Shown piece by piece: positions 1-64,000 of a stretch of DNA of 64,000 nucleotides. The DNA comes from a virus, in IMG/VR virus record IMGVR_UViG_3300037083_000054, positions 1 to 64,000 of that record; one strand, written 5' to 3'. Both the position numbers and the translations under genes were made by a program. The stretch's first letter is position 1; every line of letters begins with the position of its first letter. The notes under the pieces are model-generated. The model did not search any database and was not told the origin of the DNA. It was given only the letters and a program-made list of their open reading frames with translations.

Positions 1-378
1 ATTGGCCAGTTCTGGATACGGTGCCCGATTGGCCAGTTCTGGAAACGATGCCCAATTGGCCAGTTCTGGAAACGATGCCCAATTGGCCAGTTCTGGAAAC
101 GGTGCCCAATTGGCCAGTTCTGGAAACGATGCCCGATTGGCCAGTTCTGGATACGATGCCCAATTGGCCAGTTCTGGATACGATGCCCAATTGGCCAGTT
201 CTGGATACGGTGCCCGATTGGCCAGTTCTGGATACGGTGCCCGATTGGCCAGTTCTGGAAACGATGCCCAATTGGCCAGTTCTGGATACGATGCCCGATT
301 GGCCAGTTCTGGATACGGTGCCCGATTGGCCAGTTCTGGAAACGATGCCCAATTGGCCAGTTCTGGATACGATGCCCG
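1..378 (+). repeat. 27-bp tandem repeat, 14 exact-length copies
   Basis: Fourteen 27-bp units run head to tail without length variation and encode the 9-residue unit LASSG(Y/N)(G/D)A(R/Q). A degenerate fifteenth unit follows at 379. Differences between units are confined to three codons, each with two states: TAC/AAC, GGT/GAT and CGA/CAA. The array is cut by the window edge, so its true copy number is unknown. There are no unique spacers, so it is a coding minisatellite and not a CRISPR array. Confidence 0.95.
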
Positions 379-583
379 ATTGGAAATGTCGGGAGAAAAT
401 AGCATTGGAGCCATCGCCGCAAAAAATGGTCGCATCAAGGTCGGCTCGAAAGGTGCATTCGCGATTTCTTTCTGGACAGACGCGGATGGATGGCGATTTT
501 TGACCGGAAAAGTTGGCGAGAATGGAATCCTTGCTGATACGTGGTATCAGGTGAAGGATGGTCAGTTGGCGAAGTGCGAATGA
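2..583 (+). CDS. DUF7666-like repeat protein, 5' end outside window
   Basis: The visible 193 residues are about 126 residues of 9-residue repeats followed by a C-terminal domain of about 65 residues (GENSIGAIAAKNG..., ending near WYQVKDGQLAKCE). That repeat plus C-terminal domain layout is known from phage and bacterial proteins carrying a DUF7666-type C-terminus; the function is unknown. The start lies upstream of the window. The TGA stop overlaps the next ATG (TGATG), so it is probably translationally coupled to the following small genes. The repeats also stay open in a second frame (21-503), which I treat as a by-product of repetition. Confidence 0.75.
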   Translation: MASSGYGARLASSGNDAQLASSGNDAQLASSGNGAQLASSGNDARLASSGYDAQLASSGYDAQLASSGYGARLASSGYGARLASSGNDAQLASSGYDARLASSGYGARLASSGNDAQLASSGYDARLEMSGENSIGAIAAKNGRIKVGSKGAFAISFWTDADGWRFLTGKVGENGILADTWYQVKDGQLAKCE

Positions 584-27883: not shown

Positions 27884-28276
27884 ATGACGCAAGAATTGAG
27901 AGTCACGATTCACGCGATGGAGCGATTCGTCCAGCGGACTCGCAAGCAATTTCGGCATATCGACGACTGCCTCGCTCGCGGATGCCAGAAATGCGATCGA
28001 CTGAAAGAGATCATTCGCCAAGAAGTCTTTCAGCACTCTGCCGAGATTTCGAAAGAATTGTTGATTCGCTTCGGGCGAGCGAAAGAATATACCCCCGTTC
28101 GCCATACGTCTCTCAAAGGAAAAACCTCCCGCTATTTCTTGCTGGGAGAATTCGAATTCATTGTCGATGATTCGGTCGAACCGGCGGTTTTGATTACCTT
28201 CGCGAAACGGCATCAAGAAACCGTCTGGCGAAAGATCGCAAAAAACTCCCGCACAGGGAATCGGAAAGAACACTAA
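27884..28276 (+). CDS. hypothetical protein (130 aa)
   Basis: Begins TQELRVTIHAMERFVQRTRK, where HAxxRFxxR is reminiscent of small RNase/toxin-like folds, and includes CLARGCQKCDRLKEI. No firm family. TAATG overlap with the gene fragment that element 1 interrupts. Confidence 0.55.
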   Translation: MTQELRVTIHAMERFVQRTRKQFRHIDDCLARGCQKCDRLKEIIRQEVFQHSAEISKELLIRFGRAKEYTPVRHTSLKGKTSRYFLLGEFEFIVDDSVEPAVLITFAKRHQETVWRKIAKNSRTGNRKEH

Positions 28277-28300
28277 TGGACGGTGAAAGAACGCTCGGGC
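28276..28300 (+). pseudogene. 5' fragment of LGxxxF family gene split by element 1
   Basis: ATG overlaps the previous TAA. The first eight codons read MDGERTLG and then the element begins. The continuation is at 32718-32929, in frame when the element and one copy of the 9-bp target duplication are removed. The restored protein is 78 residues (MDGERTLGQQFHDAYWQPD... ERAAQDLIRPYLRKIAELEK) and fits the LGxxxF family. Confidence 0.85.
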
Positions 28301-28374
28301 GGCTTTGCAACGCAATTGGCCAAAACGACTTAAATGCGTTTCAGGATGAATAAATACGTTTCAAGGAACTGAAA

Positions 28375-28602
28375 ATGAGCGATTTGAACGAAAAAAGACC
28401 GGAACTGAAGATCTATGTTGTTGGCGAGACTTCCGGGAATCCAGAAGACTGGTCGGAGTTTGGGAGCCGAAAAATCGTGATTGCGGAGTCGCCAGAGCAG
28501 GCATTGGATCTCTCTGATGCAACTCGTCGGGGCTGCGTGTGCCTATTGAATGCAAGTTTTCCAATGGTGGTGATGAGCGAGGAATTTACAGGGACCACCT
28601 AA
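28375..28602 (+). CDS. hypothetical cargo protein (75 aa)
   Basis: First cargo gene of element 1. Sequence ELKIYVVGETSGNPEDWSEFGSRKIVIAESPEQAL suggests a small alpha/beta fold; proteins of this pattern turn up in phages and planctomycetes without known function. Ends convergently with the MltR-like gene (4-base overlap). Confidence 0.55.
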   Translation: MSDLNEKRPELKIYVVGETSGNPEDWSEFGSRKIVIAESPEQALDLSDATRRGCVCLLNASFPMVVMSEEFTGTT

Positions 28603-29171
28603 TCCCATTGATCCTTCAGGCGGTTCACTTTTTTTACGTCCCACGATTTGAGGATCAAGTCAGTGCCGACTGTGGCAACGATCATTGAAAATCGACCGCG
28701 ATTCGTTGATGAGTCAAGGTGTTGATTCACGAAGTCGATCATATCGTCCATGTCGCGGATGTCCGATTCTCGCGGAAGATTGAGATGAAGCTTCGACGGC
28801 ATTGTGAGTTTCTTACAATCTGACGCAACTGATTCGTGATCGAATGACAGCACATCCAGCTTGTGAGCAAAGCGATTCCTTATCTCGGCCAGTAATGCAA
28901 GATTGTTGAAGCAGCCTTTTGATATAATCCCAAGGCAATATGCACACTTCGCCTTATTCAAAAACGACCCGATAGGGCCGGACGAATCAAGCATCGCATT
29001 CGCGGTTTCTCCCTCAATAAAATGCAGTCCTAGGAGCGATCCAAGGCAATGGTCCACATAAGCGATTCCGACGATCGCACAAACTGAATCTGTTTGATGA
29101 GTGAGTGCATCGAATAAACCTTGCCATTTTGCTCGCAGATCTTCTGGACTCAGTTGTTTTGGTTTCGCCAT
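28599..29171 (-). CDS. MltR-like/HEPN-fold protein (190 aa)
   Basis: Pattern AIVGIAYVDHCLGSLLGLHF, GPIGSFLNKAKCAYCLGIIS and AEIRNRFAHKLD is that of the MltR (mannitol operon repressor-like) family. IRNRFAH provides an R-x4-H motif as in HEPN domains, which in other families form RNases or partner-binding toxins. Here it is transposon cargo, so a defence or addiction role is possible. That is inference; a classical transcriptional role is not indicated by context. Confidence 0.65.
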   Translation of the reverse strand: MAKPKQLSPEDLRAKWQGLFDALTHQTDSVCAIVGIAYVDHCLGSLLGLHFIEGETANAMLDSSGPIGSFLNKAKCAYCLGIISKGCFNNLALLAEIRNRFAHKLDVLSFDHESVASDCKKLTMPSKLHLNLPRESDIRDMDDMIDFVNQHLDSSTNRGRFSMIVATVGTDLILKSWDVKKVNRLKDQWD

Positions 29172-29205
29172 TTCACTCCTGATAATGTTTGATTTGATTA
29201 AAATA

Positions 29206-29247
29206 AAAAACCCGCATCTGACACCAAAAGGCTACCGATGTGGGTTT
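29206..29247 (-). terminator. intrinsic terminator of transposase 1
   Basis: On the minus strand, GAAACCCACATCGG...GATGCGGGTTTTTTATTTT. It lies 3' of the transposase gene and separates it from the MltR-like gene. Confidence 0.8.
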
Positions 29248-29269
29248 CTCTCATTCAAGCGAATCGCAT

Positions 29270-30577
29270 TTACTGTGATGCCAATTCTTTTTCCATTTCC
29301 TCAATTTCAAGATCTGCGACCCAAGCGTCGCGAGCGTAAGACACCGGTTTTGTTGGTTCGATCGTTTTGTTGTCGCCCCAGAAAATTGGCTCGATCCCAA
29401 GTTCGCATTGTTCTTGAATCAGGCAACAGAGATTGTGAGCGATCAGCTTGCACAAAACCTCATTGGTCATGGCGACCAAGTTTTTGCTGCGAACAGCGTC
29501 GCCGAACTTTCTTTTGACCATGCTGAACGTACTTTCGACGTTTGATCGACGATGATAGTGAGCGAGGTATTCATCCTTTTTGAATTCGAAATAGTGCAGC
29601 ATCTTCTTGAATAGACCACCGACTGATCCAGTCGCATTGTCCTTGAACGCGATGAATGCTATCCCACCGAGATTAGCGACAGTTTCGAAGTTCTCCAGGC
29701 TACTGTATGCCTTGTCCGCCGAGACTTCTTCAATCATGAACGTCTTGCCAGTCTCTTTCACGAGTGGTTCAAACTGCGGGCAATCTGCCGAGTTCTGATC
29801 CATGATCCGAACTGCTGTCACGCAATTCGTTTTGATTCCGCAGGCGATGTGACATTTGATCCAGACGTGCTTCAGTTTCGTCACCCCATACTTCGCGTCA
29901 TACCAGCGTTCGAACTTATTTGTCGAGAATCCGCTGCTGTCGATCGCAAATCGAGTCTCGACCACTTTCAATGGTGCGGCACTCTTGCCGACCAGGGCCG
30001 TGAGAAATGGCGTCAACGCGGGGTTCTCCATGAATGCTGTCGTTTTCACGCCAGGAATCGGTCGCGAGATAAATCCTCGTGCTTGTGCTTCTCGCAAGTC
30101 GGACGAAAACCGTCGACTGCTGAGCGTGGTATAGACCTTGAAGACACAGGCGAAAATCGAATCACGAACTGTGTGCGGTTTCGGCCCTTTTCTCCAGAGT
30201 TCGCGTTCTGGTTCTTTTAATCCCCTGCACAGATCGTGCAGCAATTCCTGTACTCGGTCCTTTTCCATGCTCTGAGCCTTATTGTAAGCCGCCCAGTTTT
30301 GCTTGTAGGTTGTTTTCTTGGTCAGCGTGATGCTCTCGGTCTCTGTCACGCTCCCATCGGGATTAAACTCGCGTTTGGCAGTAATTTCGACGGCATATTG
30401 ATGCTTGCACTTGAAACCGTTCTCCGAATGGTCCGGACATGTGCAGGTCTTTTTGACAGGATCGACGCGGTAAATCGTATTGGCATTTGATTGTGAAGGA
30501 ACCAGCCAAACATTCGACATTCGGTTCAATTTGCACACGGCAGCGATGATCAATCCGCGTTGTTCTCTGGCATCCAT
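29270..30577 (-). CDS. SWIM-finger DDE transposase 1 (435 aa)
   Basis: N-terminal SWIM zinc finger at about 50-75 (CTCPDHSENGFKCKHQYAVE, CxCxnCxH). The catalytic triad candidates are FAIDSSGFS (Asp), VSADKAYSS (Asp) and the conserved end RSNVESTFSMVKRKFGD (Glu), as in IS4/IS5-type DDE_Tnp_1 enzymes. It would bind the terminal repeats and catalyse cut-and-paste. The start MDAREQRGLI is preceded by a short hairpin and an antisense RNA region, so expression is probably tightly controlled. Confidence 0.88.
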   Translation of the reverse strand: MDAREQRGLIIAAVCKLNRMSNVWLVPSQSNANTIYRVDPVKKTCTCPDHSENGFKCKHQYAVEITAKREFNPDGSVTETESITLTKKTTYKQNWAAYNKAQSMEKDRVQELLHDLCRGLKEPERELWRKGPKPHTVRDSIFACVFKVYTTLSSRRFSSDLREAQARGFISRPIPGVKTTAFMENPALTPFLTALVGKSAAPLKVVETRFAIDSSGFSTNKFERWYDAKYGVTKLKHVWIKCHIACGIKTNCVTAVRIMDQNSADCPQFEPLVKETGKTFMIEEVSADKAYSSLENFETVANLGGIAFIAFKDNATGSVGGLFKKMLHYFEFKKDEYLAHYHRRSNVESTFSMVKRKFGDAVRSKNLVAMTNEVLCKLIAHNLCCLIQEQCELGIEPIFWGDNKTIEPTKPVSYARDAWVADLEIEEMEKELASQ

Positions 30578-30581
30578 CTGA

Positions 30582-30703
30582 TAACCCCTTTTAATCAGGG
30601 GCGTTCCCGATAGAATGTTCGATGGTTGGTCGCATTCTGGTGGAAACGCCGGTTTGTGATTCCGTCCCTGATTCGATTCACAGTCGAGTCAGGGATTTTT
30701 TAT
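30582..30703 (+). ncRNA. predicted antisense RNA over transposase 1 leader
   Basis: Plus-strand sequence with a long hairpin, GGCGTTCCCGATAGAATG (from 30600) pairing with CATTCTGGTGGAAACGCC (to 30650), then a terminator hairpin TCCCTGA...TCAGGGA followed by TTTTTT (30665-30701). Complementary to the 5' leader of the transposase mRNA. Similar structures are at 50444 and 52322. It recalls the RNA-OUT antisense control of IS10. The 5' end is not defined. Confidence 0.65.
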
Positions 30704-30724
30704 TGGCCAGTGCCAACACGAGCT

Positions 30725-30759
30725 AGCATACAAAAATAAAAACGATTGTCAAGTATGCT
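30725..30759. promoter_or_regulatory. divergent operator and transposase promoter, element 1
   Basis: Arms AGCATAC (30725-30731) and GTATGCT (30753-30759) enclose a minus-strand -35 TTGACA, a 16-base spacer and a -10 TATGCT made by the arm. Likely binding site of a regulator controlling both divergent genes. Confidence 0.6.
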
Positions 30760-30897
30760 TGCTCGGAATTGAATGTTGTGTTACGATTCTTCTGCTACGC
30801 ATGCTTGCCACGTCAATAGTGCAGGCGCAATGGTTTTCGGCAGGTGTCACGAAAACACGCAGATCGTACGGAAAACAGCAGGTGAAGGAGTCGAATC

Positions 30898-31962
30898 ATG
30901 AAGAAGAAAGAAGCGAGCGAGCACGCAAGGGCCTTGTCGTCTCTTGGAGCGTCCAAAGGTGGAAAGGCAAGGATGGCGAGTCTGACAGAGGAGCAGCGCA
31001 AAGAAATCGCCTCGAATGCCGCTAAGGCTCGGTGGGGAGAAAAGCTGCCGGAAGTGACGCATGGCGATCCAGGGCATCCATTGAAGATCGGTGATATCGA
31101 AATTCCCTGTTACGTCCTGAATGATGGAACCCGTGTTTTGCATCAAAGAGGGATGGTTGATGCACTCGGAATGGCTCGCGGAAGCAGTGGAGGAATTGGC
31201 GGTGACCGACTGGCTAAATTTGTGGCTGGAGAACGATTGAAACCCTACGTTTCAGCCGATTTGCTAGCGGTGACCGAATCACCAATTAAATTCAAGGCTC
31301 CAAATGGCCATGTAGCCTATGGGTATGATGCGAATGTCCTTGCAGAACTGTGCGATGCCGTCATTGCCGCAAGGAATGCCGGAAAGCTGCAAAAGCAGCA
31401 AGCCCACATTGCAGAGCAGTGCGAAACTCTGAAGTCTGGGTTTGCCAGAGTCGGTATCATTGCGTTGGTCGATGAAGCGACCGGATATCAATATGACCGT
31501 GCCCGTACCGCATTGGCAGATATCCTAGAAGCGTTTCTGAAGGGAGCACTGGGTGCGTGGGCCAAGCGATTCGATGATGACTTCTACAAGGAATTGTGCC
31601 GCCTTCGAGATATCCCGTGGCCACCAATCAAAAATCTTCCATCGTATTTTGGCCATCTTGTTAACGATGTAGTCTATGACAGACTGGCTCCAGGATTGAA
31701 GTCTGAGCTTCAGGCGAGGAGCCCGAAGACTCCACGCGGCAATCGTAAGAACAAAATGCATCAGTGGCTGACGGACGATATCGGTCATCCAAAACTGAAA
31801 GAACATATCATCGCGGTAAAGGCATTAATGCGTTCTTGTGACGATTGGGAAGATTTTCATCGTCGGCTAGATAGGGCCTTTCCAAAATTCGATTTGTCAT
31901 CATTGGATTTACCGGAAAATGTCATCATGATTGAAGCCGAAAATAAGCCTGAAGACTCGTGA
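30898..31962 (+). CDS. P63C-domain protein (354 aa)
   Basis: RBS GGTGAAGGAGTCG lies upstream. N-terminal region has a Gly/Lys-rich GASKGGKARMASLTEEQRKEIA, then DGTRVLHQRGMVDALG and the P63C-type core (LAELCDAVIAARNAGKLQKQQ, DEATGYQYDRARTALADILEAF, RDIPWPPIKNLPSYFGHLVND). P63C proteins are found in phages and mobile elements, often beside antirepressors. Here it is in the regulator position of the element, divergent to the transposase. Confidence 0.85.
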   Translation: MKKKEASEHARALSSLGASKGGKARMASLTEEQRKEIASNAAKARWGEKLPEVTHGDPGHPLKIGDIEIPCYVLNDGTRVLHQRGMVDALGMARGSSGGIGGDRLAKFVAGERLKPYVSADLLAVTESPIKFKAPNGHVAYGYDANVLAELCDAVIAARNAGKLQKQQAHIAEQCETLKSGFARVGIIALVDEATGYQYDRARTALADILEAFLKGALGAWAKRFDDDFYKELCRLRDIPWPPIKNLPSYFGHLVNDVVYDRLAPGLKSELQARSPKTPRGNRKNKMHQWLTDDIGHPKLKEHIIAVKALMRSCDDWEDFHRRLDRAFPKFDLSSLDLPENVIMIEAENKPEDS

Positions 31963-31987
31963 TCGTTGCATTTCGGGAGAAAACTGA

Positions 31988-32632
31988 ATGGCATCAGTGC
32001 CTATTGTCTGTCCGCATTGCTCACGGTCATACAGAGTAGGCGACACGGCCATCGGAAGAAAAGTGTCCTGCATGAATAAGCAGTGCGGGAAGGCATTTGT
32101 CGCCACGACCTCAATCCGATCCGCTCAGTTTGATTTTGAAACGGCAAAAACAGAAACGCCAGTTGAGATCACGTTTAAGTCGATTGACGAGGAAAAAACC
32201 GAGAAGCAAGCACAAGAATTTGGATTGCCAAAATTTGTGCCTTCCGCTGCGGCACCGCCGCTATCTCCCCCGCCAGTGACACCAGCCTTTTCTTTTGTGG
32301 ATGATGATCGAGAGCCATCTCCGTCGCGTAGTACGAACTCTCGATATCCCAACTTGATGCTCAATCTCGAATGGCTGGAAAACGCCGCAAAACGTCAATT
32401 AATGATCGCAAGGATAATTGCTCTTTTACTAGCAGTTCTTTCAGTGATCGGCGCAATCGGCGTGATGGTTCAGGTAGGGGATTTCACTACCGGAATCGTT
32501 GGAATCGGTCTTTTCCCACCGCTCATCTTGTTTCTGATCATTTCTCCAGCATGGATTCTCTATGTTCTTATGATGGCGACAGTTGAATTCATTCGCGTCA
32601 TTATGGACATCGAAAGAAATACCAGAAAATAA
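31988..32632 (+). CDS. zinc-ribbon membrane protein (214 aa)
   Basis: N-terminal zinc ribbon (CPHCSRSYRVGDTAIGRKVSC...CGKAF, MJ0042-like), a Pro/Glu linker and two hydrophobic helices at the C-terminus (ARIIALLLAVLSVIGAIGVMV; LFPPLILFLIISPAWILYVL). This plan is common in planctomycetes. It ends 6 bases before the right-end subterminal repeats of element 1. Confidence 0.75.
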   Translation: MASVPIVCPHCSRSYRVGDTAIGRKVSCMNKQCGKAFVATTSIRSAQFDFETAKTETPVEITFKSIDEEKTEKQAQEFGLPKFVPSAAAPPLSPPPVTPAFSFVDDDREPSPSRSTNSRYPNLMLNLEWLENAAKRQLMIARIIALLLAVLSVIGAIGVMVQVGDFTTGIVGIGLFPPLILFLIISPAWILYVLMMATVEFIRVIMDIERNTRK

Positions 32633-32717
32633 TCAGACAATTCCGAAACGTCTTAATGCGTTTCAACTTGCGGAAATGCGTTGCGCCTGCCAATTGCGTT
32701 GCAAAGCCCGCTCGGGC

Positions 32718-32929
32718 AACAGTTTCATGATGCCTATTGGCAGCCCGATTCTCTCGGCAATCTTCCTCGTGGAATGTGTTGGTTCCGACCGTGGAGCGAG
32801 CAATCCAGCGGCACAAAATCGGCCTGCGAACGAGCGGCCCAAGATCTGATTCGCCCCTATCTGCGGAAGATTGCGGAACTGGAAAAACAGATTTCTTGTC
32901 AGAATCTGGCAGAAAATTTCGCGGAATAG
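32718..32929 (+). pseudogene. 3' part of LGxxxF family gene split by element 1
   Basis: In-frame continuation of the 28276-28300 fragment. Encodes QQFHDAYWQPDSLGNLPRG... and AELEKQISCQNLAENFAE. Without the start codon, which is 4.4 kb away, it is not expected to be translated unless a non-standard start is used. Confidence 0.8.
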
Positions 32930-47877: not shown

Positions 47878-47974
47878 GGCTTTGCACGTTTAATCCCGAA
47901 TAAAAGTGCAGACGGACCCGAACGGCGAATTAAACGTGCATGCCAAAGGATCTGACAATTGGCGATTATCCGGA

Positions 47975-48193
47975 TTATTTCATTGAAGTTTCTGAATTTG
48001 CAACAGACGTTTTCGCTGCGGCCTTCGCGGCTTTCATGGCTTTAATCTTTTCTCGATACCAGTCAGGTATCTTGTGCGTCGTCACAGGCGGAAAGGGAAT
48101 CGTTTCTTTTGAGCAGATGCTTTCTGAGACTGGAAATTCTTCGAAAACGAGCTCCAAACTCCCATTCACCAGTTTTAATGTCCAGTGCGACAT
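47975..48193 (-). CDS. hypothetical cargo protein (72 aa), overlapping frame
   Basis: Overlaps the 3' end of the gene 48063-48467 by 131 bases in another frame. The part downstream of the overlap (PFPPVTTHKIPDWYREKIKA, Lys/Ala-rich tail) looks like real coding sequence. It could be a separate gene or the true end of the upstream gene after a frameshift. Confidence 0.4.
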   Translation of the reverse strand: MSHWTLKLVNGSLELVFEEFPVSESICSKETIPFPPVTTHKIPDWYREKIKAMKAAKAAAKTSVANSETSMK

Positions 48194-48467
48194 AATTCAT
48201 CTCTTCGGTTTCGCAGTGATCAAAATATCGGAGCAGTTCGTCTAAGTCCTTGATGGCAGCAGGTTCATATGTGCCGACAGTTGTCCATTCGTCACGCTCG
48301 GCGATGAATTGCTTTGCTGCCATCTCGCTGGAAAACAATGGAGCGGCATTTTGGATCTCTTCTGGCGAGAGAACAGCCAATATCCCCCTCCATCCCGCGA
48401 CAATATCGACAGGAATCCAAATAGGATACGTAATGTCGATATCATCGTTTTCATGGATTGATTCCAT
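48063..48467 (-). CDS. hypothetical cargo protein (134 aa)
   Basis: Start MESIHENDDIDITYPIWIPV at 48467, directly behind the structured leader 48468-48582, whose last hairpin carries the RBS GGGAG. The first 100 residues read well (AKQFIAERDEWTTVGTYEPA); the last 40 overlap the alternative frame of 47975-48193. Confidence 0.55.
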   Translation of the reverse strand: MESIHENDDIDITYPIWIPVDIVAGWRGILAVLSPEEIQNAAPLFSSEMAAKQFIAERDEWTTVGTYEPAAIKDLDELLRYFDHCETEEMNYVALDIKTGEWEFGARFRRISSLRKHLLKRNDSLSACDDAQDT

Positions 48468-48582
48468 TATGCGAACTCCCGATTGACTACGTACCGGGAG
48501 TTGCTACCATGCCATCGCCATAACCGCATGGTTCTCCCAGAGAACAAAAGAACGCCAGCAATCCCCATTGCTGGCGTTTATC
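48468..48582 (-). ncRNA. structured leader RNA, copy A
   Basis: Minus strand. Four hairpins in order: ACGCCAGCAA/TTGCTGGCGT followed by a T-run; GTTCTC/GAGAAC; CCATGC/GCATGG; ACTCCCG/CGGGAGT, the last arm holding the RBS just before ATG 48467. Copy B is at 56006-56121 with the same order, conserved loop words and compatible pair changes. Hairpin 1 could also be the terminator of the zinc-ribbon gene upstream. Confidence 0.7.
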
Positions 48583-48618
48583 ATTTTCCAAGATTCATTC
48601 TGAACTGCAATGGCAGAT

Positions 48619-49125
48619 TCAGATTGATCTCTCGGTCTCAATTTTGACTGTCGACATCGTTGCCCAGACCATCAACAAGATCCATACGATGCCGGTCCAC
48701 GCCAAACAGAAGTTCAGAATCAGGATCGGAACCAGATTCCGATGTGCTCGTAAATAGGCGATTATGGACGGCAAGAAATGCAACAAGATTAAAGCAACAA
48801 TGGCAACTGATCCAAATGCCGCGAAAAACACGGCGCGAATTTTGTCGTCGGCCAATGTCTTATTGTTCGCAAAAATCCCCACGCACATTACGACAAACAA
48901 GAGTGCAGTAAGAATCGCAGAGCCAATGACGATAATTTTCCCTTGTCCGTTCTTCGTCCAATAAACTGAAGAATGATCCGATTTCTGGATGATAATTGGT
49001 TCTTCTTTGTCGGCATCACACCTTGGACACACGGTCATTTTCGATGTGTTTGCCGTTGCCGGTATTGCGTAAACTTTACCGCACGACGGACAGGTCCATT
49101 TTTGACGTGACGCACCTGAAGACAT
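48619..49125 (-). CDS. zinc-ribbon membrane protein (168 aa)
   Basis: WTCPSCGKVYAIPATA...CPRCDAD is an N-terminal zinc ribbon; three TM helices follow (IIVIGSAILTALLFVVMCVG; FFAAFGSVAIVALILLHFL; ILILNFCLAWTGIVWILLMV). Same plan as 31988 and 54432, all next to transposons. Role unknown. Confidence 0.75.
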   Translation of the reverse strand: MSSGASRQKWTCPSCGKVYAIPATANTSKMTVCPRCDADKEEPIIIQKSDHSSVYWTKNGQGKIIVIGSAILTALLFVVMCVGIFANNKTLADDKIRAVFFAAFGSVAIVALILLHFLPSIIAYLRAHRNLVPILILNFCLAWTGIVWILLMVWATMSTVKIETERSI

Positions 49126-49150
49126 GATCTCTCTTTCGTCGTGTTGAGTG

Positions 49151-49199
49151 TTGAGCAGAAAAGACGCATCGGATGCTTGTAAGACTACCGATGCGTCTT
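49151..49199 (-). terminator. intrinsic terminator of transposase 2
   Basis: Minus strand: AAGACGCATCGG, loop, CCGATGCGTCTTTT. It lies 3' of the transposase 2 gene and 5' of the zinc-ribbon gene. Confidence 0.8.
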
Positions 49200-49220
49200 G
49201 CTGAGATTCAAGCGATGCGT

Positions 49221-50438
49221 TTACTTCGCGAATGCAGGTTCGATACCTAGTTCGTAAAACTCACTGATTAGGCAGCAGATGTTATGTGCCAAAACCTTAC
49301 ACAGAACTTCGTTTTTCATGGCGATTTCGGTCTTGCTGCGAACTGAATCTCCGAACTTGCGTTTTACCATTGAGAATGTGGATTCAATGTTACTCCGCTT
49401 GTGATACGACTGAAGAAACTCCTCACGGTACAAGCTGAAGAAATGAAATGCCTTGCCAAACAATCCACCGATGCCGCCTGTAGTTCCCGAACGAAACGTG
49501 ATGTATGGCTCGGCCCCGAGAGCATTGATGGCTCGGAAGTTCGATTCGCTCGCATACTGAGTGTCGGCACTCACTTCCTTAACGTCGAAATTCTTTGCGG
49601 TTGTCTGCATGAGTGCTGGCAGAAGTGGTGAATCATTCGCGTTGCGGTCAAGGATTTCCACAGCCGTGATGACATTCGTTTTCACCCCGCACACGGCATG
49701 CAGCTTGACCCAAGTATGCTCAGTCCTGACTTTTCCATATTTATGATCGAACCATCTAATGAACTTCGACGATGTGAAACCTGATGAATCAACCGCAAAA
49801 TCGGTTTCAACGCTTTTGAGCGGCAAACTGGATGTCTGGATCAATTGAACAAGATGTTCCGTCATTTCTTCATCTTCTAGCGCAGTGCTGATCGCATTGA
49901 AATGCGGTGTTCGTTCGATATACCCCTTGTACTTCGCATCGTCCAGATCGCACATAAATCTTCTCTGGCTGACAGTGCTGTAAACCTTGAAACAGGCCAT
50001 GAATATGCAGTCAGACATGGGAATTCGTGGGCGACCGCGTCCAGGCGTCGCTAAGGGTGCCTTGACGTTGTCGCACAGCGATCGCAATAGCGACTGAAAG
50101 TGATCTTTCTCGCTCGTCTGCGCCTGATTGTATTCCGCCCACATTTGAGGATATGTCGGACGTTTGACGGTCGTAGAAATAGTCACTTCCTCAGTCGTTG
50201 TCTCAGTGCCGTCCGCGTTCTGCTCGCGTTTGATGACATATCGGACGGCGTAAATGTGCTTGCACTCTTGACCACGTTTTTCGAAGTCCGGGCAATTGCA
50301 ATAGGGCGTTTGCTCATCTGCCACGACGGTGTATTTGCCTTCGCCTGTCTGACTGGGGACGATCCACACTTGTCCTTTTTGCACAATTCGACTTCCGGCA
50401 GCGATCGTAGCACCACGTTGTTCTCTTGCTTCGCACAT
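49221..50438 (-). CDS. SWIM-finger DDE transposase 2 (405 aa)
   Basis: Start MCEAREQRGATI at 50438; the frame is open far upstream but that part is leader and operator. SWIM finger YCNCPDFEKRGQECKHIYAV, acidic residues in FAVDSSGFTSSKF, VSADTQYAS and RSNIESTFSMVKRKFGDS. Clear homologue of transposase 1, with similar motif order and end (LCKVLAHNICCLI). Expression probably controlled by the RHH operator and the antisense RNA. Confidence 0.88.
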   Translation of the reverse strand: MCEAREQRGATIAAGSRIVQKGQVWIVPSQTGEGKYTVVADEQTPYCNCPDFEKRGQECKHIYAVRYVIKREQNADGTETTTEEVTISTTVKRPTYPQMWAEYNQAQTSEKDHFQSLLRSLCDNVKAPLATPGRGRPRIPMSDCIFMACFKVYSTVSQRRFMCDLDDAKYKGYIERTPHFNAISTALEDEEMTEHLVQLIQTSSLPLKSVETDFAVDSSGFTSSKFIRWFDHKYGKVRTEHTWVKLHAVCGVKTNVITAVEILDRNANDSPLLPALMQTTAKNFDVKEVSADTQYASESNFRAINALGAEPYITFRSGTTGGIGGLFGKAFHFFSLYREEFLQSYHKRSNIESTFSMVKRKFGDSVRSKTEIAMKNEVLCKVLAHNICCLISEFYELGIEPAFAK

Positions 50439-50443
50439 GACTT

Positions 50444-50560
50444 GCCTCTTTTTCTGTTGAGGCATTCCCGATAGAATCGCAATTGCTATGTCGCGGATTG
50501 GCGGGAACGCCAGTTTGTGATTCGCCCCGGTTTCGATTCGCAGTCGATTCCGGGTTTTCC
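50444..50560 (+). ncRNA. predicted antisense RNA over transposase 2 leader
   Basis: Hairpin GGCATTCCCG...AATC with GATTGGCGGGAACGCC (50461-50511), then a terminator hairpin CCCGG/CCGGG and TTTT (50526-50558). Same arrangement as at 30582 and 52322. Confidence 0.65.
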
Positions 50561-50574
50561 TTACGCATAGTATT

Positions 50575-50640
50575 GTACGGACATAATTATCGGAAGTCAA
50601 TAAGAAACCATTGACAAAAATAATTTTGTCCGTACACTTC
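50575..50640. promoter_or_regulatory. divergent promoters and RHH operator, element 2
   Basis: Arms GTACGGACA (50575-50583) and TGTCCGTAC (50627-50635). Plus strand: -35 TTGACA (50611-50616), 16 bases, -10 TACACT, giving a nearly leaderless RHH mRNA (ATG 50645). Minus strand: -35 TTGACT, 17 bases, -10 TACAAT for the transposase. Each -10 overlaps an arm, so one protein could shut off both. Confidence 0.7.
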
Positions 50641-50644
50641 CAGC

Positions 50645-50902
50645 ATGCACGAAAAACGACCAGGAAGACCGCCAAAGTCAGGCGTCGCATTCGGAGTTCG
50701 CATCGAGATTCGAGCGACGGACGAAGAGCGAGACCGCATCGACAAGGCGGCGAGCATTGCCGGTAAAGAGCGATCCGAGTGGATTCGTAGCACGCTGCAA
50801 TTAGCGGCGAATCAGACAATTGAAGAACATGATTCACAACCAGTGTTGAAAATGACGAAGAGATCTGTAAAATCAAAGAAGACCGGCCATGCTGGAACAT
50901 GA
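50645..50902 (+). CDS. ribbon-helix-helix regulator (85 aa)
   Basis: Basic start RPGRPPKSG, then the RHH pattern VRIEIRATDEERDRIDKAAS and SEWIRSTLQLAAN, as in CopG/MetJ-like proteins. Probably represses itself and transposase 2 through the inverted-repeat operator. No Shine-Dalgarno, consistent with leaderless translation. Similar to 52552 and 63806. Confidence 0.78.
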   Translation: MHEKRPGRPPKSGVAFGVRIEIRATDEERDRIDKAASIAGKERSEWIRSTLQLAANQTIEEHDSQPVLKMTKRSVKSKKTGHAGT

Positions 50903-51154
50903 CCGGCTTCGAGAGAAAAACGCCAATCTTCGGGATTGGCACCGATGGCATCCTGCCATCACCTGCTATCCGTCGAGGAACAGCCTGTCATTGCGGCAAA
51001 TTGCCGTCTTGTCAGATCGAACCAAAACGGAAGCAGGCCATGAAGCCATATGGCTTGCATGGCAGTCCTCCTGAAAACCGAGCGATTGGATTATCTTGGG
51101 TTCTAAGTCAAAGTACCCAATCCTCGGTCACTGAGGCACCACTATCCACAGTGG

Positions 51155-51190
51155 CCCGGATGTCGCCTCGTTTGGCATCCGGGTTATTTC
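51155..51190 (+). terminator. intrinsic terminator
   Basis: CCCGGATG / CATCCGGG with TTATTTCTT after it. It ends the RHH transcription unit. The 250 bp between 50903 and here contains no convincing gene on either strand. Confidence 0.75.
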
Positions 51191-51534
51191 TTCGCTTCCT
51201 CTCCACTCCATTTCCCGTCCGGGAGCTTTCTGAAGTTTTTGTCGTTCAGCGTGGTATTGACAGTTCCCTGCGGAATTCCTGATTTGGCGATAACGTCACG
51301 ACGCAACATCGGCCCCTCTTTAATCAAAAACTCTCTCAATTCTTGAACCCTAGTCTTTCCCGCAGTAGTGGCATTGCCTGCTGGCGTTTTATTGCCTCCG
51401 CCTGCCGGAGTTTTCTGATTCGACCGGGGCGGTTTTGAAGTAATTCGCTCAATTGCTTCTGCACCGAGCATTAATTCCTCCACTGTCGTTCCGATTGCAA
51501 TCCAGCCATTTTCTGTTTTTTGAATTGATGCCAT
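51184..51534 (-). CDS. winged-helix-like cargo protein (116 aa)
   Basis: Start at 51534 (GGGGAC upstream); an upstream in-frame ATG at 51642 would add a hydrophobic segment. The Gly/Asn-rich linker (KTPAGGGNKTPAGNATTAGK) leads to a wHTH: RVQELREFLIKEGPMLRRDV, SGIPQGTVNTTLNDKNFRKL, GKWS. DNA-binding regulator or antitoxin-like. Confidence 0.65.
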   Translation of the reverse strand: MASIQKTENGWIAIGTTVEELMLGAEAIERITSKPPRSNQKTPAGGGNKTPAGNATTAGKTRVQELREFLIKEGPMLRRDVIAKSGIPQGTVNTTLNDKNFRKLPDGKWSGEEAKK

Positions 51535-51657
51535 ACAAGTCCCCGCGATTCTGTTCCAGACGTCGATAATGACAATACTTATGAATGGTATCGACCATAA
51601 CGTAAAAAGCAATAGCGCAGGGAACGACCATAATTTGGTCATGCGTCCATATTGCCT

Positions 51658-51695
51658 GAAAACGAAAAAGGCCCGGAGATCCGCAGATCACCGAG
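51658..51695 (-). terminator. intrinsic terminator
   Basis: Minus strand AGGCTCGG...CCGGGCCTTTTTCG. Lies between the right end of element 2 and the winged-helix gene. Confidence 0.6.
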
Positions 51696-51783
51696 CCTTG
51701 ATAAGTTTGAGAAAGCCCCCGTCAGTTGATTAAAAGTGCAGAACTGCGATTATTCGTGCAAGTGCCATTAAACGTGCAAAGCC

Positions 51784-52316
51784 ACCGCACCAGTGGCAAA
51801 AGAAATCAGAGCGACTGCCCGCATGATGGGGAATCCGAGGCCCGCGACGGTGGTTTTGACTCGTGGGAATTCCAATTGGTTCTCAGCAGTATCCGGCATT
51901 GAGAGTGTCGTACCGTCAGCCAGGAACAGTTCACGGCCTCGCCAGTGCCAAGCATTGTCGGCAGTACCGTGAACGCTGCATCCGATTTCCTTCGCAAGTC
52001 GCGACATCACTTGAAGAGGGAAGCGACTGCGGGCGTCGGCATAGCTAGCGGATGACGCTGAACAGGCAGGAAGTCCATTCGCCACGCGATGAGCCAGAAT
52101 CCGGCTCACAGCTTCATTGAGCGATTTATCTTGACTGAGACACTGAGACAGCCACGCCCATAGAGTGACCAGCGGGCAAAACACTCGTTGACGATATTCG
52201 TGCCCTTCATCTTCGAGAACACCGACAACATGGTCGCGTTTGAGAAGTCGTCCAAATGGAAGCCCGTCATCATTTGCAAATGTGTCACGAACTAAGCGGA
52301 AGTCTTTTCTGCTCAT
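51784..52316 (-). pseudogene. IS4-family transposase, 3' part lost at element 2
   Basis: Start MSRKDFRLVRDTFANDDGLP at 52316. The N-terminal part of an IS4-type enzyme is intact (FCPLVTLWAWLSQCLSQDKS; LADGTTLSMPDTAENQLEFP; TVAGLGFPIMRAVALISF) with the first catalytic Asp, but the frame runs into the element 2 end after about 177 of an expected 400+ residues. Not functional. Confidence 0.88.
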
Positions 52317-52321
52317 CTGAT

Positions 52322-52440
52322 TCGCCTTTTCTTCAGGGCGAACCGTGATAGAATGCTGTTGTGATACGGGGCATTCTGGCGGATTCGCTGGTTTGAACTG
52401 GACCCGGTTTCGACGCCAATTGAAGCCGGGTTTTTCTTTT
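52322..52440 (+). ncRNA. predicted antisense RNA over the IS4 transposase leader
   Basis: Hairpin GCGAACC...AGAATGC with GCATTCTGGCGGATTCGC (52338-52388), then terminator CCCGG/CCGGG and TTTTT (52403-52436). Same plan as 30582 and 50444 although the transposase belongs to another branch. Confidence 0.62.
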
Positions 52441-52551: not shown

Positions 52552-52749
52552 ATGAAGCACAAAACTGATCCACTGAAGCGGGGTCGATCGTCGACCGGGC
52601 AAATGCCGATGAAGTATTTCAGGATTGCGGACGAAGACTGGCAACAGATCGAATCTGCGGCCAGTGCGTCCGATGAAACGACTTCTGAATACATTCGCCG
52701 AGTCCTGTTGAAAGACTCGGCCCGCATTCTCAAGAAAAAAGATGCCTAG
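52552..52749 (+). CDS. ribbon-helix-helix regulator (65 aa)
   Basis: RHH pattern MKYFRIADEDWQQIESAASA and SEYIRRVLLKDSA. Promoter and operator are directly upstream; it faces away from the IS4 transposase remnant. Probably the former regulator of that element. Confidence 0.75.
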   Translation: MKHKTDPLKRGRSSTGQMPMKYFRIADEDWQQIESAASASDETTSEYIRRVLLKDSARILKKKDA

Positions 52750-56810: not shown

Positions 56811-56879
56811 TGGATGATGTAGGATTCGAACCCACGCCGCAGGATTTACATCCCCGTTCTACCGCTGAACTAATCATCC
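56811..56879 (-). tRNA. short tRNA (possible anticodon GTA)
   Basis: Acceptor GGATGAT/ATCATCC with A discriminator, D-arm GTTC...GAAC, and T-arm GTGGG TTCGAAT CCTAC are all good. The anticodon arm is one base short; the best fold gives loop ATGTAAA (anticodon GTA). 69 nt, class I size. Confidence 0.65.
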
Positions 56880-60987: not shown

Positions 60988-62838
60988 ATGAGCACAATCC
61001 GAGAGCGAATTCGTGGTGCGGTTGACTTGTATTCTTTTAATACAAACGAGAAGCGTGATGCTGATGGAAGATGGGCTTCCAGCGGCGATGCTCATTCGGA
61101 AGCCGAGCGAGCGAATTCCGTGTTCAGGAAGCATGAGCAACCGACCGCTTCTGCGTCCGTTGACGAGGATGGTTCGTACAAGGTCGAGCATCCCACGCAT
61201 GGGGAATTGACTTCGAACGAGATTGATAACCTGCATTCCGCCGCATCGGATGTCGATCGAGCCAACAAAGTGCTCTCGAAGCACGGCCATGAACCTCTGG
61301 CGACAATCGGCGACGACATGCAGACAACGCACGATCCTGACAACCTCGAAGATGCGAGCGATGAGGTCAAGCGAGCCAATAAGGTCTTCGAAAAGCACGG
61401 ACTGCCGGATCGAGCGAATCTGGAAAATGTGAGTGGTATGTTCGGCGATTACAACTCGTCAGTGGACGCCGACGAACTTGAGCAAGCCGACGCGGATCAC
61501 GAGAAGGTCAAGAGGATCTTCGAAAAGCACGGGATTGACCCAAAGCATTCCAGCATCACAAACGCGAACGGTTCGTGGGAGTCAAAACACAATCTCGACG
61601 ATATTGAGTCCCTGCATCAGGACATTTCGCGGGCCAACAAACGATTGGAAGCGATTGGGTTGAAACCGAATCTGAAGATGGCGATTCAGTTGGGGGAAGC
61701 TTACTCGCCGCATGATCTGGATGAAATCAATGACGCGATCGACGTTCTGAAGAAGTTCCGAGACAAGGAACGATATTCACGCCGCGAGGATCTATCGTCG
61801 ATTGTGCGGGCCAAATACGTTCTGCGGGATTTCGCGATTGACCGCTATGCCGAAGGTCACTGGATTACAGTTGAGCCATCTGGGACGCATATTGAGCTTG
61901 ATGGCAAAGGAAACGTTCTCAAAGGTCCGAACATCAATAAAAGTCCACACGGAACGCTTCCGCCTCCTGCTAAACCAAAAGTTAAGACTCCTATTCAAGA
62001 TCCAATGTTGCGAGGAACAACGCCGCTTCCGCCTCCTGCTAATAAGAAATTGCCGCCAGTTCCCGGACAAGAACCGCCATCCGCTCCATCATGGTTCAAA
62101 GGCGGCAAGAAAAGCGAAGTTTCCGCTCCCGGAAGCATGACTCATCGTTTGCGATCGGCAATGGAAAATCATGTTCACTCAGTTGTCCAGCCGAAGAAGG
62201 ATGAACACTTTGCGGAACATGCCCCCGAAGAAAAGGCAGCCTCCCAAATGACTCCCGATGAGCATCTCCGCAAAACCGTGGAAGACATCAAAAAGCGACT
62301 TGCCGCAAGCGTGAAGCAAGCGGTTGCCTCGCCATCAGCCGAGAAGCCCAAGCCGAAAAAGCTGACGGCCCAGATTGATCCGGAAACGACGAAAGCGGCC
62401 TTTGCTCCGAAAGCCAAACCGGAAAAGAAACCGGAGATGCCGAAACCGCAGTCGGTCGCTCCTGCCGCTCCAACTCCGCATACCGATTTCTCGCAAGATC
62501 GACTCGCTGTCAATCGAGCGAAATCAACAGGCGATACAGAACAAGCGAAACAACTTCAGTCCGTCTTGACGAACAAAATCGCAGCGGCAATGGGAATCGT
62601 TCAGACGTCAGCGAGTGCCATCAATGACTTTGAAGCACGGCTGCGGAATGGGGTCGCGAACTACGCGAAACGCAAGTCAGCGGTTGGCCAATTGGATCTG
62701 TTTTCCGGCGAGACTCGATCATCATCCAAAACACAATCGCACTTGGATTGGGACGAGAGTAAGCATCATCGGGGGCTTTGCCCATTTAATGGCACTTGCC
62801 CGAATAATGAAAGGTCTGCCCGTTTAATCGGTGCATGA
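60988..62838 (+). CDS. post-portal structural-type protein, paralog 3, 3' end replaced by element 3
   Basis: Starts IRERIRGAVDLYSFNTNEKR, DADGRWASSGD, like the two genes before. Repeats of KRANKVFEKHGL-type follow (four units), then RYAEGHWITVEPSGTHIELD, a Pro-rich region and a DWDESKHHRG near the end. That last motif should continue as in SKHPRGDGGKWS, but the element 3 end starts at 62774, so the final 20 residues come from the transposon. The genuine gene continues beyond. Confidence 0.75.
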   Translation: MSTIRERIRGAVDLYSFNTNEKRDADGRWASSGDAHSEAERANSVFRKHEQPTASASVDEDGSYKVEHPTHGELTSNEIDNLHSAASDVDRANKVLSKHGHEPLATIGDDMQTTHDPDNLEDASDEVKRANKVFEKHGLPDRANLENVSGMFGDYNSSVDADELEQADADHEKVKRIFEKHGIDPKHSSITNANGSWESKHNLDDIESLHQDISRANKRLEAIGLKPNLKMAIQLGEAYSPHDLDEINDAIDVLKKFRDKERYSRREDLSSIVRAKYVLRDFAIDRYAEGHWITVEPSGTHIELDGKGNVLKGPNINKSPHGTLPPPAKPKVKTPIQDPMLRGTTPLPPPANKKLPPVPGQEPPSAPSWFKGGKKSEVSAPGSMTHRLRSAMENHVHSVVQPKKDEHFAEHAPEEKAASQMTPDEHLRKTVEDIKKRLAASVKQAVASPSAEKPKPKKLTAQIDPETTKAAFAPKAKPEKKPEMPKPQSVAPAAPTPHTDFSQDRLAVNRAKSTGDTEQAKQLQSVLTNKIAAAMGIVQTSASAINDFEARLRNGVANYAKRKSAVGQLDLFSGETRSSSKTQSHLDWDESKHHRGLCPFNGTCPNNERSARLIGA

Positions 62839-62847
62839 AAAATTATC

Positions 62848-63183
62848 ATGGCCATGAAGCCTGAAGAACTATTCAATTTAGCCGTCACAGACAAGTTTCC
62901 CGACTATTTCCATCCAGGGCAAGGCGATTTGGTGCCAGACGATCTTCTGTCGGCCATGATTGTCCGCTGTGGCGCTCCAGATCTGGGCGGAAAAACGAAC
63001 AGTGCGCTTGAGGGTGGTGGGCTGGTGATCGATTACATTCCAAAAGGAATGCTTGGCGTCAAGCGGCTTGTGCTGAGTTTAAATGATTTGGGAATCAATG
63101 TTGTTATGTGTGATCACCTTCCAGAAGATAATGAGACCATTGTGGATTCAGTTCCACTAAATACCGCCGAACAGCATTCTTGA
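62848..63183 (+). CDS. hypothetical cargo protein (111 aa)
   Basis: ATG 62848 or 62854. PEELFNLAVTDKFPDYFHPG and GGLVIDYIPKGMLGVKRLVL suggest a mixed fold; unrecognised. Convergent with the next gene. Confidence 0.55.
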   Translation: MAMKPEELFNLAVTDKFPDYFHPGQGDLVPDDLLSAMIVRCGAPDLGGKTNSALEGGGLVIDYIPKGMLGVKRLVLSLNDLGINVVMCDHLPEDNETIVDSVPLNTAEQHS

Positions 63184-63721
63184 CGTGCGTCAGTTCATGA
63201 ATGTGGAAAGCCTGCTCGATTGGCGTTCCTTCGTGGTGATATCTCCATTTGGAGAATACTTCTGAGCAGTCGTTCAAAATCTGATCAATTGTCGCTTTCT
63301 GTTTTGGTTGTGTTGTATCTGAACAAAACTGAATGCGAACAAGATCTTTTGAACTATTCTCTTCATATAAAGCAGCAATCTTCTTCTGGCTGTTGGCTGT
63401 CATTTTCTGAAACAATTCGTTCAGTGGGTGTATTCGCTTGATAGATGTGTTTTCGCATTTGAGAACGGACTTGAAATACAACTCAACACAGAAAGCTGTT
63501 GCGACAACGAATGCTTTTAGAGTGGGAAGCCGTGTTTCAACTGTTGATCTTGGGTTTTTCTGATGTTCAACCCTCGCTGCTTCGAGACGATTCAGCGAGT
63601 CAGCGGCGAGAACCTCAGACGAATAGTCCCAATTGACCGCATTGGCAAATAACCCAATTCCAGTGTCGTATGGTTCTGTGTCGAGGGCCACATGGTAAAT
63701 CGTCATATTCGTTGAATCCAT
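63104..63721 (-). CDS. HEPN-like cargo protein (205 aa)
   Basis: Pattern ATAFCVELYFKSVLKCENTS...IHPLNELFQKMTANSQKKIA and SEVFSKWRYHHEG resembles HEPN-domain proteins that pair with nucleotidyltransferases or act as RNases. No R-x4-6-H motif as clean as in the 28599 gene. Cargo of element 3. Overlaps the convergent 62848 gene by 80 bases. Confidence 0.55.
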   Translation of the reverse strand: MDSTNMTIYHVALDTEPYDTGIGLFANAVNWDYSSEVLAADSLNRLEAARVEHQKNPRSTVETRLPTLKAFVVATAFCVELYFKSVLKCENTSIKRIHPLNELFQKMTANSQKKIAALYEENSSKDLVRIQFCSDTTQPKQKATIDQILNDCSEVFSKWRYHHEGTPIEQAFHIHELTHVKNAVRRYLVELNPQWSHYLLEGDHT

Positions 63722-63805
63722 AATTCGCGCGAACCATGTCCGATGTCATGACGTCTTAAGAATATCATGATTCAACATTTGACTCTCTTCGCCCCCACGC
63801 TCTAA

Positions 63806-63997
63806 TCACGACTTCTTTCGTGATTGCTCACGCCGAGCTTCTTCCAGCAGAATTTCCCTGGCCCAGGTAGATGTGTGACCATCTGCCGCCGCGTCGAGAA
63901 CTGTTCGCTCCTCTTTCGTGAGGCGAATACGCAGTTCTGCACTCTTGCGTGCCGCATCGGATTTGAAGGGCCGTCCCCGTTCTCGTTTGGTTTCCAT
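63806..63997 (-). CDS. ribbon-helix-helix regulator (63 aa)
   Basis: Basic start RERGRPFKSDAARKSAELRI followed by RLTKEERTVLDAAADGH and TSTWAREILLEEAR, an RHH pattern as in 50645 and 52552. Start at the window edge. Expected divergent transposase would be just outside. Confidence 0.75.
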   Translation of the reverse strand: METKRERGRPFKSDAARKSAELRIRLTKEERTVLDAAADGHTSTWAREILLEEARREQSRKKS

Positions 63998-64000
63998 ATT

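What the first reader, a model, noticed from the sequence alone, without database searches (positions are those of the whole stretch)
28276..32929. Cargo transposon with perfect TIR, 9-bp target duplication and precise gene disruption
GGCTTTGCAACGCAATTGGC ends point inward from 28301 and 32708, flanked by CGCTCGGGC on both sides. Deleting 28301-32717 (element plus one TSD copy) joins MDGERTLG to QQFHDAYW... in frame, giving a 78-aa gene of a family with intact copies elsewhere in the window. The element holds a SWIM-DDE transposase plus four cargo genes, including a MltR/HEPN-like and a P63C protein. Cargo-bearing simple transposons inside a phage genome are unusual.
Basis: seen in the sequence. 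Interest (0 to 1): 0.87.

Follow-up and report, generated by a model that had tools for sequence, protein, structure and literature searches.

The report
Cargo transposon with shared RNA leader
A jumping gene that carries extra genes has cut a small gene in a bacterial virus; it belongs to an apparently undescribed family, and its transposase message begins with a folded RNA that also heads the transposases of three unrelated jumping-gene families in planctomycete bacteria, suggesting one shared way to hold transposition in check.

Summary
The transposon is real. Window 28301-32708 (4408 bp) has 20/20 perfect terminal repeats and a 9-bp duplication (CGCTCGGGC), and it interrupts a 78-codon phage ORF. 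The transposase is SWIM zinc finger plus DDE_Tnp_1. The claim of intact family copies of that ORF failed.

The virus holds three such transposases; 32 related loci lie in other phages and in Planctomycetota, Verrucomicrobiota and Alphaproteobacteria. Thirteen other intact elements have exact 9- or 10-bp duplications, so cargo (R-M, toxin-antitoxin, others) is a family trait. The ends are a fixed ruler: an element-specific 10-mer repeated directly at +23/+43 at one end and inverted at +33/+53 at the other (62 sites seen, 1.6 expected). IS903 shares GGCTTTG and 9-bp duplications but lacks the ruler, SWIM and cargo.

The transposase mRNA begins with a ~123-nt structured leader (window 30575-30700). 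A covariance model found it outside its training set directly before transposases of IS1, IS4 and IS1595 type: 27 of 28 downstream proteins tested. Covariation is strong (0/500 shuffles). A second, mutually exclusive helix covers the ribosome-binding site (p=0.0002). No Rfam match. Shown: anatomy, family, RNA conservation. Inferred: transposition, translational switching.

The parts
28301..32708 (.). Cargo transposon, 4408 bp (element 1)
   Evidence: TIR and TSD
28292..28300 (.). Target-site duplication, left copy CGCTCGGGC
32709..32717 (.). Target-site duplication, right copy CGCTCGGGC
28301..28320 (+). Left terminal inverted repeat; 'B' end (site 28306-28315, inverted repeats of it near 28334-28343 and 28354-28363)
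32689..32708 (-). Right terminal inverted repeat; 'A' end (site 32694-32703, direct repeats of it near 32676-32685 and 32656-32665)
28276..28300 (+). 5' part of the interrupted 78-codon phage ORF, overlapping the upstream stop codon (TAATG)
32718..32929 (+). 3' part of the interrupted ORF
28375..28602 (+). Cargo ORF, 75 aa, no family match
28599..29171 (-). Cargo: MtlR-like protein, 190 aa
   Evidence: PF05068 25.6 bits (cutoff 25.2)
29270..30577 (-). Transposase, 435 aa: SWIM finger (C45, C47, C57, H59) plus DDE (D213, D288, E348), all invariant in 18 relatives
30575..30700 (-). Structured leader RNA of the transposase mRNA: three hairpins, alternative helix over the ribosome-binding site
30898..31962 (+). 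Cargo: P63C-domain protein, 354 aa, with near full-length relatives in phages
   Evidence: PF10546 96.6 bits; phrog_2384 375 bits
31988..32632 (+). Cargo: zinc-ribbon protein with hydrophobic C-terminal segments, 214 aa
   Evidence: sequence; weak MJ0042 zinc-finger match
47878..51783 (.). Element 2 of the same family (TIR GGCTTTGCACGTTTAAT both ends; no TSD)
49221..50438 (-). Element 2 transposase, 49% identical to element 1's
50436..50560 (-). Leader RNA of element 2 transposase
50645..50902 (+). Short (85 aa) protein divergent from element 2 transposase; ribbon-helix-helix type by eye, candidate repressor
52314..52436 (-). Leader RNA of a truncated IS4-type transposase
62774..64000 (.). Start of elements 3/4: 'A' end at 62774; transposase and leader lie beyond the window (virus positions 64195-65463 and 64077-64197)

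Best explanation
Element 1 is a cut-and-paste-type DDE transposon of a so far unnamed family, distantly allied to IS5/IS903, that normally carries passenger genes. Its transposase (SWIM finger, helical region, RNase-H DDE core) binds three copies of an element-specific 10-bp site at each end, laid out asymmetrically (direct +23/+43 at one end, inverted +33/+53 at the other), pairs the ends, and inserts with a 9-10 bp staggered cut. It moved once into a small phage gene. Transposase output is held low at the RNA level: the mRNA begins with a ~123-nt leader in which the 3' strand of a long hairpin can instead pair with the ribosome-binding site, so that translation toggles between an open and a closed state. 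The same leader serves transposases of four IS families. Shown: anatomy, family-wide ends, duplications, empty site in a relative, leader conservation and covariation. Inferred: binding by the transposase, cut-and-paste, activity today, and the translational switch.
For: TIR/TSD and join. Relatives with GGCTTTG ends and 13 exact 9- or 10-bp duplications besides the window's. End ruler 62 sites vs 1.6 expected. End motif tracks transposase sequence, Mantel r=0.54, p=0.0002, strongest for residues 71-205. Invariant SWIM and DDE residues; RNase-H-type DDE model, top PDB match ISCth4 transposase. Empty sites with a single target copy in Bradyrhizobium. Leader: independent hits at 38-78 bits; downstream proteins 22 IS1, 4 IS4, 1 IS1595 of 28; covariation 155 double-change cells vs 43 in shuffles, slid controls at most 0.073 vs 0.446; alternative helix own 14.25 vs cross 11.03, p=0.0002, unrelated-strand controls p=0.97 and 0.49.
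Against: No experiment; no empty-site relative of this phage. Elements 2 and 3/4 lack duplications. The transposase scores 103 bits on NCBIfam IS5_2, below its 140 cutoff. Only about a third of the SWIM transposases examined carry the leader. The alternative helix beats the cross-sequence mean in only 22 of 32 leaders; in this element's own leader it is weak and the MFE mainly shows the three hairpins. Alignment A8 was fitted to the model, which inflates pair counts for the main structure.
Confidence: 0.82

Rival explanations
1. An ordinary IS5-family insertion sequence that happens to have captured four genes once; no distinct family.
For: IS903 shares GGCTTTG and a 9-bp duplication; best NCBIfam match is IS5_2.
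Against: All intact relatives are 2-8 kb with cargo and share SWIM and the end ruler; IS903B is 1057 bp with none of these.
Confidence: 0.08
2. The leader is not an RNA but a DNA feature, such as a transposase-binding palindrome or att-like repeat that travels with IS elements.
For: Mobile repeats near transposases are known candidates for DNA-level function (PMC11109978).
Against: Always sense-oriented with its last three bases as the start codon (27 of 28); inside the element, not at its ends; G-U pairs kept; serves four transposase families.
Confidence: 0.12
3. The leader is a fixed insulator against read-through from outside promoters (as described for IS10/IS50), with a static hairpin over the ribosome-binding site and no switching.
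For: Ribosome-binding-site occlusion is a known theme in transposons (own knowledge; IS10 translational control, PMC5006887 abstract); closed state is predicted 4-8 kcal/mol more stable.
Against: The open-state helix II is the better conserved one (89% of cells paired) and competes for the same strand; loops are conserved in sequence (CCAGAATGC...CATTCTA), which a plain insulator does not need.
Confidence: 0.35
4. The interrupted 78-codon ORF is not a gene and the insertion is in non-coding DNA.
For: No homologue found.
Against: ORF restored exactly in frame across the element and overlapping the upstream stop codon.
Confidence: 0.15

Closest known systems
IS5 family, IS903 group
   Same: Ends begin GGCTTTG; 9-bp duplication; DDE_Tnp_1-type core
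   Different: IS903B: 1057 bp, no cargo, no subterminal site array; its transposase gene is 969 bp against 1308 bp here. The transposase here is below the IS5_2 cutoff and has an N-terminal SWIM finger
Transporter IS (tIS), passenger-carrying insertion sequences
   Same: Passenger genes between single TIRs with one transposase
   Different: Here passengers are the rule and differ in nearly every copy
Tn7-like transposons (PMC8649781)
   Same: Works like: arrays of repeated sites at asymmetric ends; cargo rich in defence and toxin-antitoxin genes
   Different: Single DDE_Tnp_1-type transposase here, no other transposition gene recognised; 9-10 bp rather than 5-bp duplication and GGC rather than TGT ends (Tn7 values from own knowledge)
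Mutator/MULE transposons of eukaryotes
   Same: SWIM finger with a DDE transposase; about 9-bp duplication (own knowledge)
   Different: SWIM is N-terminal; Pfam assigns DDE_Tnp_1, not a MULE domain
IS10/IS50 transposase leaders
   Same: Transposase translation limited at the ribosome-binding site (own knowledge; PMC5006887 abstract)
   Different: Here a conserved, covarying leader shared by four IS families
'Transposase-resistance' and 'Rhodopirellula-1' candidate RNA motifs (PMC2864571)
   Same: Candidate cis-regulatory motifs, one named for transposases, one listed for Planctomycetes
   Different: Listed without an Rfam number; sequences not available here, so identity could not be tested

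Membership tests
IS5 family / IS903 group | Transposase passes the IS5-family model | tested here: not met
   NF033579 103 bits, cutoff 140
IS5 family / IS903 group | GGCTTTG termini and 9-bp duplication | tested here: met
   IS903B control
IS5 family / IS903 group | Compact element holding only the transposase | tested here: not met
   4408 bp with four cargo ORFs
Transporter IS (tIS) | Passenger genes inside one pair of IS ends | tested here: met
Tn7-like | TnsA/B/C core and 5-bp duplication | tested here: not met
   no such domains in element 1 proteins; 9-bp TSD
Tn7-like | Arrays of transposase-binding sites at the ends | tested here: inconclusive
   arrays of repeated sites present; binding not testable here
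Composite transposon | Two IS copies flanking the cargo | tested here: not met
   one transposase, single 20-bp TIRs
MULE | MULE-type transposase domain | tested here: not met
   Pfam significant matches are DDE_Tnp_1 and SWIM, none to a MULE model
Any Rfam 15 RNA family (leader) | Match at gathering score | tested here: not met
Transposase-resistance motif (2010 candidate) | Same consensus sequence and structure | not testable with these tools
   only the table entry could be read
Cis-regulatory RNA (general) | Covarying structure at a fixed place before one gene class | tested here: met

The most novel reading that the evidence does not exclude
The leader is a signal-responsive RNA switch (to a metabolite, protein, stress or phage infection) that has been passed between unrelated transposases, so that one host cue releases transposition of four IS families at once in planctomycetes and their phages.
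Probability: 0.3. Interest if true: 0.92.

Novelty: new variant of a known kind. Interest (0 to 1): 0.74.

Why it matters
The transposon family adds a SWIM-finger, multi-site-end design to bacterial DDE elements and carries restriction-modification and toxin-antitoxin genes in bacteria and phages, with several copies in single phage genomes. The leader matters more: a conserved, covarying RNA in front of transposases of four unrelated families means that control of transposition can be a swappable RNA module. That makes a long-standing question, how IS elements sense when to jump, open to simple reporter and structure-probing tests.

Tried and rejected
Portal and neighbouring-gene scans for related phages with an empty site found none. 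Family membership of the 78-aa ORF product: rejected for lack of significant hits. No relative in INPHARED phages or PLSDB plasmids beyond distant IS5-like transposases at about 23-25% identity. Pairing elements 2, 3/4 or the orphan end at 115557 into TSD-bearing elements failed. SWIM as the sole determinant of the end motif: partial correlation is near zero for SWIM (0.07) and highest for residues 71-205 (0.33). Ends of the SWIM-IS1595 element not found. Rfam low-threshold hits on the leader are on the opposite strand or far below gathering scores.
Full report
THE OBSERVATION. The sequence at 28276-32929 is as described: 20-nt perfect inverted repeats at 28301-28320 and 32689-32708, flanked on both sides by CGCTCGGGC. 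Leaving out 28301-32717 joins an ORF of 78 codons. Its ATG overlaps the stop of the preceding gene (TAATG at 28274-28278), typical of coupled phage genes. The added claim that this ORF belongs to a family with intact copies in the window is not supported (best E about 0.5).

THE VIRUS. The window is bases 1-64000 of an IMG/VR record of 122,834 bp. It encodes a terminase large subunit, a portal protein and a helicase, so it is a tailed phage. A host is not shown; the nearest relatives of the transposase outside viral contigs are in Planctomycetota MAGs (up to 68% identity).

THE ELEMENT. The transposase has an N-terminal SWIM finger and a DDE_Tnp_1 core; C45, C47, C57, H59 and D213, D288, E348 are invariant in 18 relatives. 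AlphaFold gives a mean pLDDT of 81 and an RNase-H-type core; the top PDB match is ISCth4 transposase. Cargo: a 75-aa ORF, an MtlR-like protein, a P63C protein whose relatives span diverse phages, and a zinc-ribbon protein with a hydrophobic C-terminal part. Three related transposases sit in this one virus: element 2 at 47878-51783 and elements 3/4 at 62774-68132 are without duplications.

THE FAMILY. Scans found seven loci in viral contigs and 25 in genome contigs; five of the eight virus records tested hold a terminase. In the taxonomic family of Zavarzinella, 51 of 95 genomes had some match at E<=0.001, but many are short SWIM-only or fragment matches, so this is not a count of elements. Ends starting GGCTTTG flank the transposase with exact 9-bp duplications in L004, L014, L022, L023, L024, L025, L027 and L039 and exact 10-bp ones in L017, L018, L019 and L026; L075 adds CCTGGCTAC. 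With the window's copy that is 14. For L025 the empty site with one target copy is seen in other Bradyrhizobium genomes. Intact elements are 2.0-8.0 kb and their cargo differs: N-6 DNA methylases in L004, L027 and L039, a Panacea antitoxin in L023, IrrE plus HTH in L020, Bro-N in L022, and short ribbon-helix-helix-like proteins divergent from the transposase in several.

THE ENDS. The ten bases after GGCTT differ between elements but recur inside each end at fixed places: direct at +23 and +43 at the 'A' end, inverted at +33 and +53 at the 'B' end; 62 sites against 1.6 expected in shuffled ends, and the same typing was recovered on further loci. A few ends depart from the ruler (for example the left end of element 2 has its first inverted copy at +23). 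The transposase is read towards the B end in every element inspected. The motif follows transposase sequence (Mantel r=0.54, p=0.0002), most for residues 71-205; shared ancestry alone could produce part of this. IS903B as control has GGCTTTG ends and a 9-bp duplication but no site array.

THE LEADER RNA. Upstream of the transposases of elements 1, 2 and 3, and of a truncated IS4-type transposase at 52.3 kb, lies a similar ~123-nt stretch with three hairpins. A covariance model from these four found it outside training in L072 (95 bits), L022 (42 bits) and five genomes of the Zavarzinella family, before IS1-like and IS1595-like transposases. A second model from eleven sequences found 28 places in 23 of 298 genomes of the class, and further cases including an IS4-type one in phage G025. 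Of 28 downstream proteins that start on the model's last codon, 22 match IS1, 4 IS4 and 1 IS1595 models, and one (L136) none. The IS1595-type protein (L125) also carries a SWIM finger like the one here. On 32 leaders, 88% of pair cells are paired, 26 of 28 pairs show changes on both sides, and no shuffle of 500 reaches this; slid structures fall to a score of 0.073 or less against 0.446. That alignment was fitted to the model, but helix 1 pairs in 94% of cells with varied sequence.

THE SWITCH. In many leaders the 3' strand of the long hairpin can pair instead with the bases just before the start codon, covering the ribosome-binding site. Across 32 leaders, complementarity within the same leader (14.25) exceeds that between different leaders (11.03), p=0.0002 by permutation; two unrelated strand pairs show no effect (p=0.97, 0.49). 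Folding places the closed state 4-8 kcal/mol below the open one. A bistable translational switch is therefore the best reading, but it is inferred; what would tip it is unknown. No Rfam family matches. A 2010 candidate motif called Transposase-resistance exists (PMC2864571) and could not be compared.

VERDICT. The transposon is a solid member of an apparently undescribed, cargo-rich transposon family allied to IS5/IS903; the literature searches made here found no description of it, but ISfinder could not be searched. The leader RNA shared by four IS families is the more surprising part and directly testable.

Noticed in passing
L074 4359-4367 and 8714-8722 (G002:C41 59358 and 63713): Tandem array in a Gemmataceae MAG: consecutive elements with near-identical ends, each separated by the same 9 bp CTTCCTTGT, but with different cargo. 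Cassette-like stacking at one target.
   Followed up: partly
L125 773-1972: IS1595-type transposase fused to a SWIM finger like that of the IS5-like family, with the same leader RNA: domain swapping between transposase families.
   Followed up: partly
L136 1501-1619: Strong leader RNA hit (61 bits) before a non-transposase protein of 176 aa; by eye it recalls phage RecT-type proteins (untested).
   Followed up: no
L014 5875-7889: A phage holds a 2015-bp element with perfect TSD whose transposase is reduced to an 82-aa remnant beside a 201-aa cargo ORF (SecB-like by eye): probably non-autonomous. Another intact transposase lies in the same phage, but with a different end motif.
   Followed up: partly
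virus position 115557 (L007 15557): Orphan 'B' end (GGCTTTGCCCGTTTAAT...) without partner or transposase nearby.
   Followed up: no
window 51784-52316: Truncated IS4-type transposase directly beside element 2, with its own leader RNA and a short RHH-like protein upstream (52552-52749).
   Followed up: partly
L025 5653 and L039 5114: Two Bradyrhizobium insertions both lie inside CCCTCCCC...GGGGAGGG inverted repeats, hinting at a preference for hairpin or terminator targets.
   Followed up: no
window 1-383: 27-bp tandem repeat, 14.2 copies, 94% matches, at the start of the virus record.
   Followed up: no
window 56811-56879: Single tRNA-Tyr (GTA) gene in the virus record.
   Followed up: no
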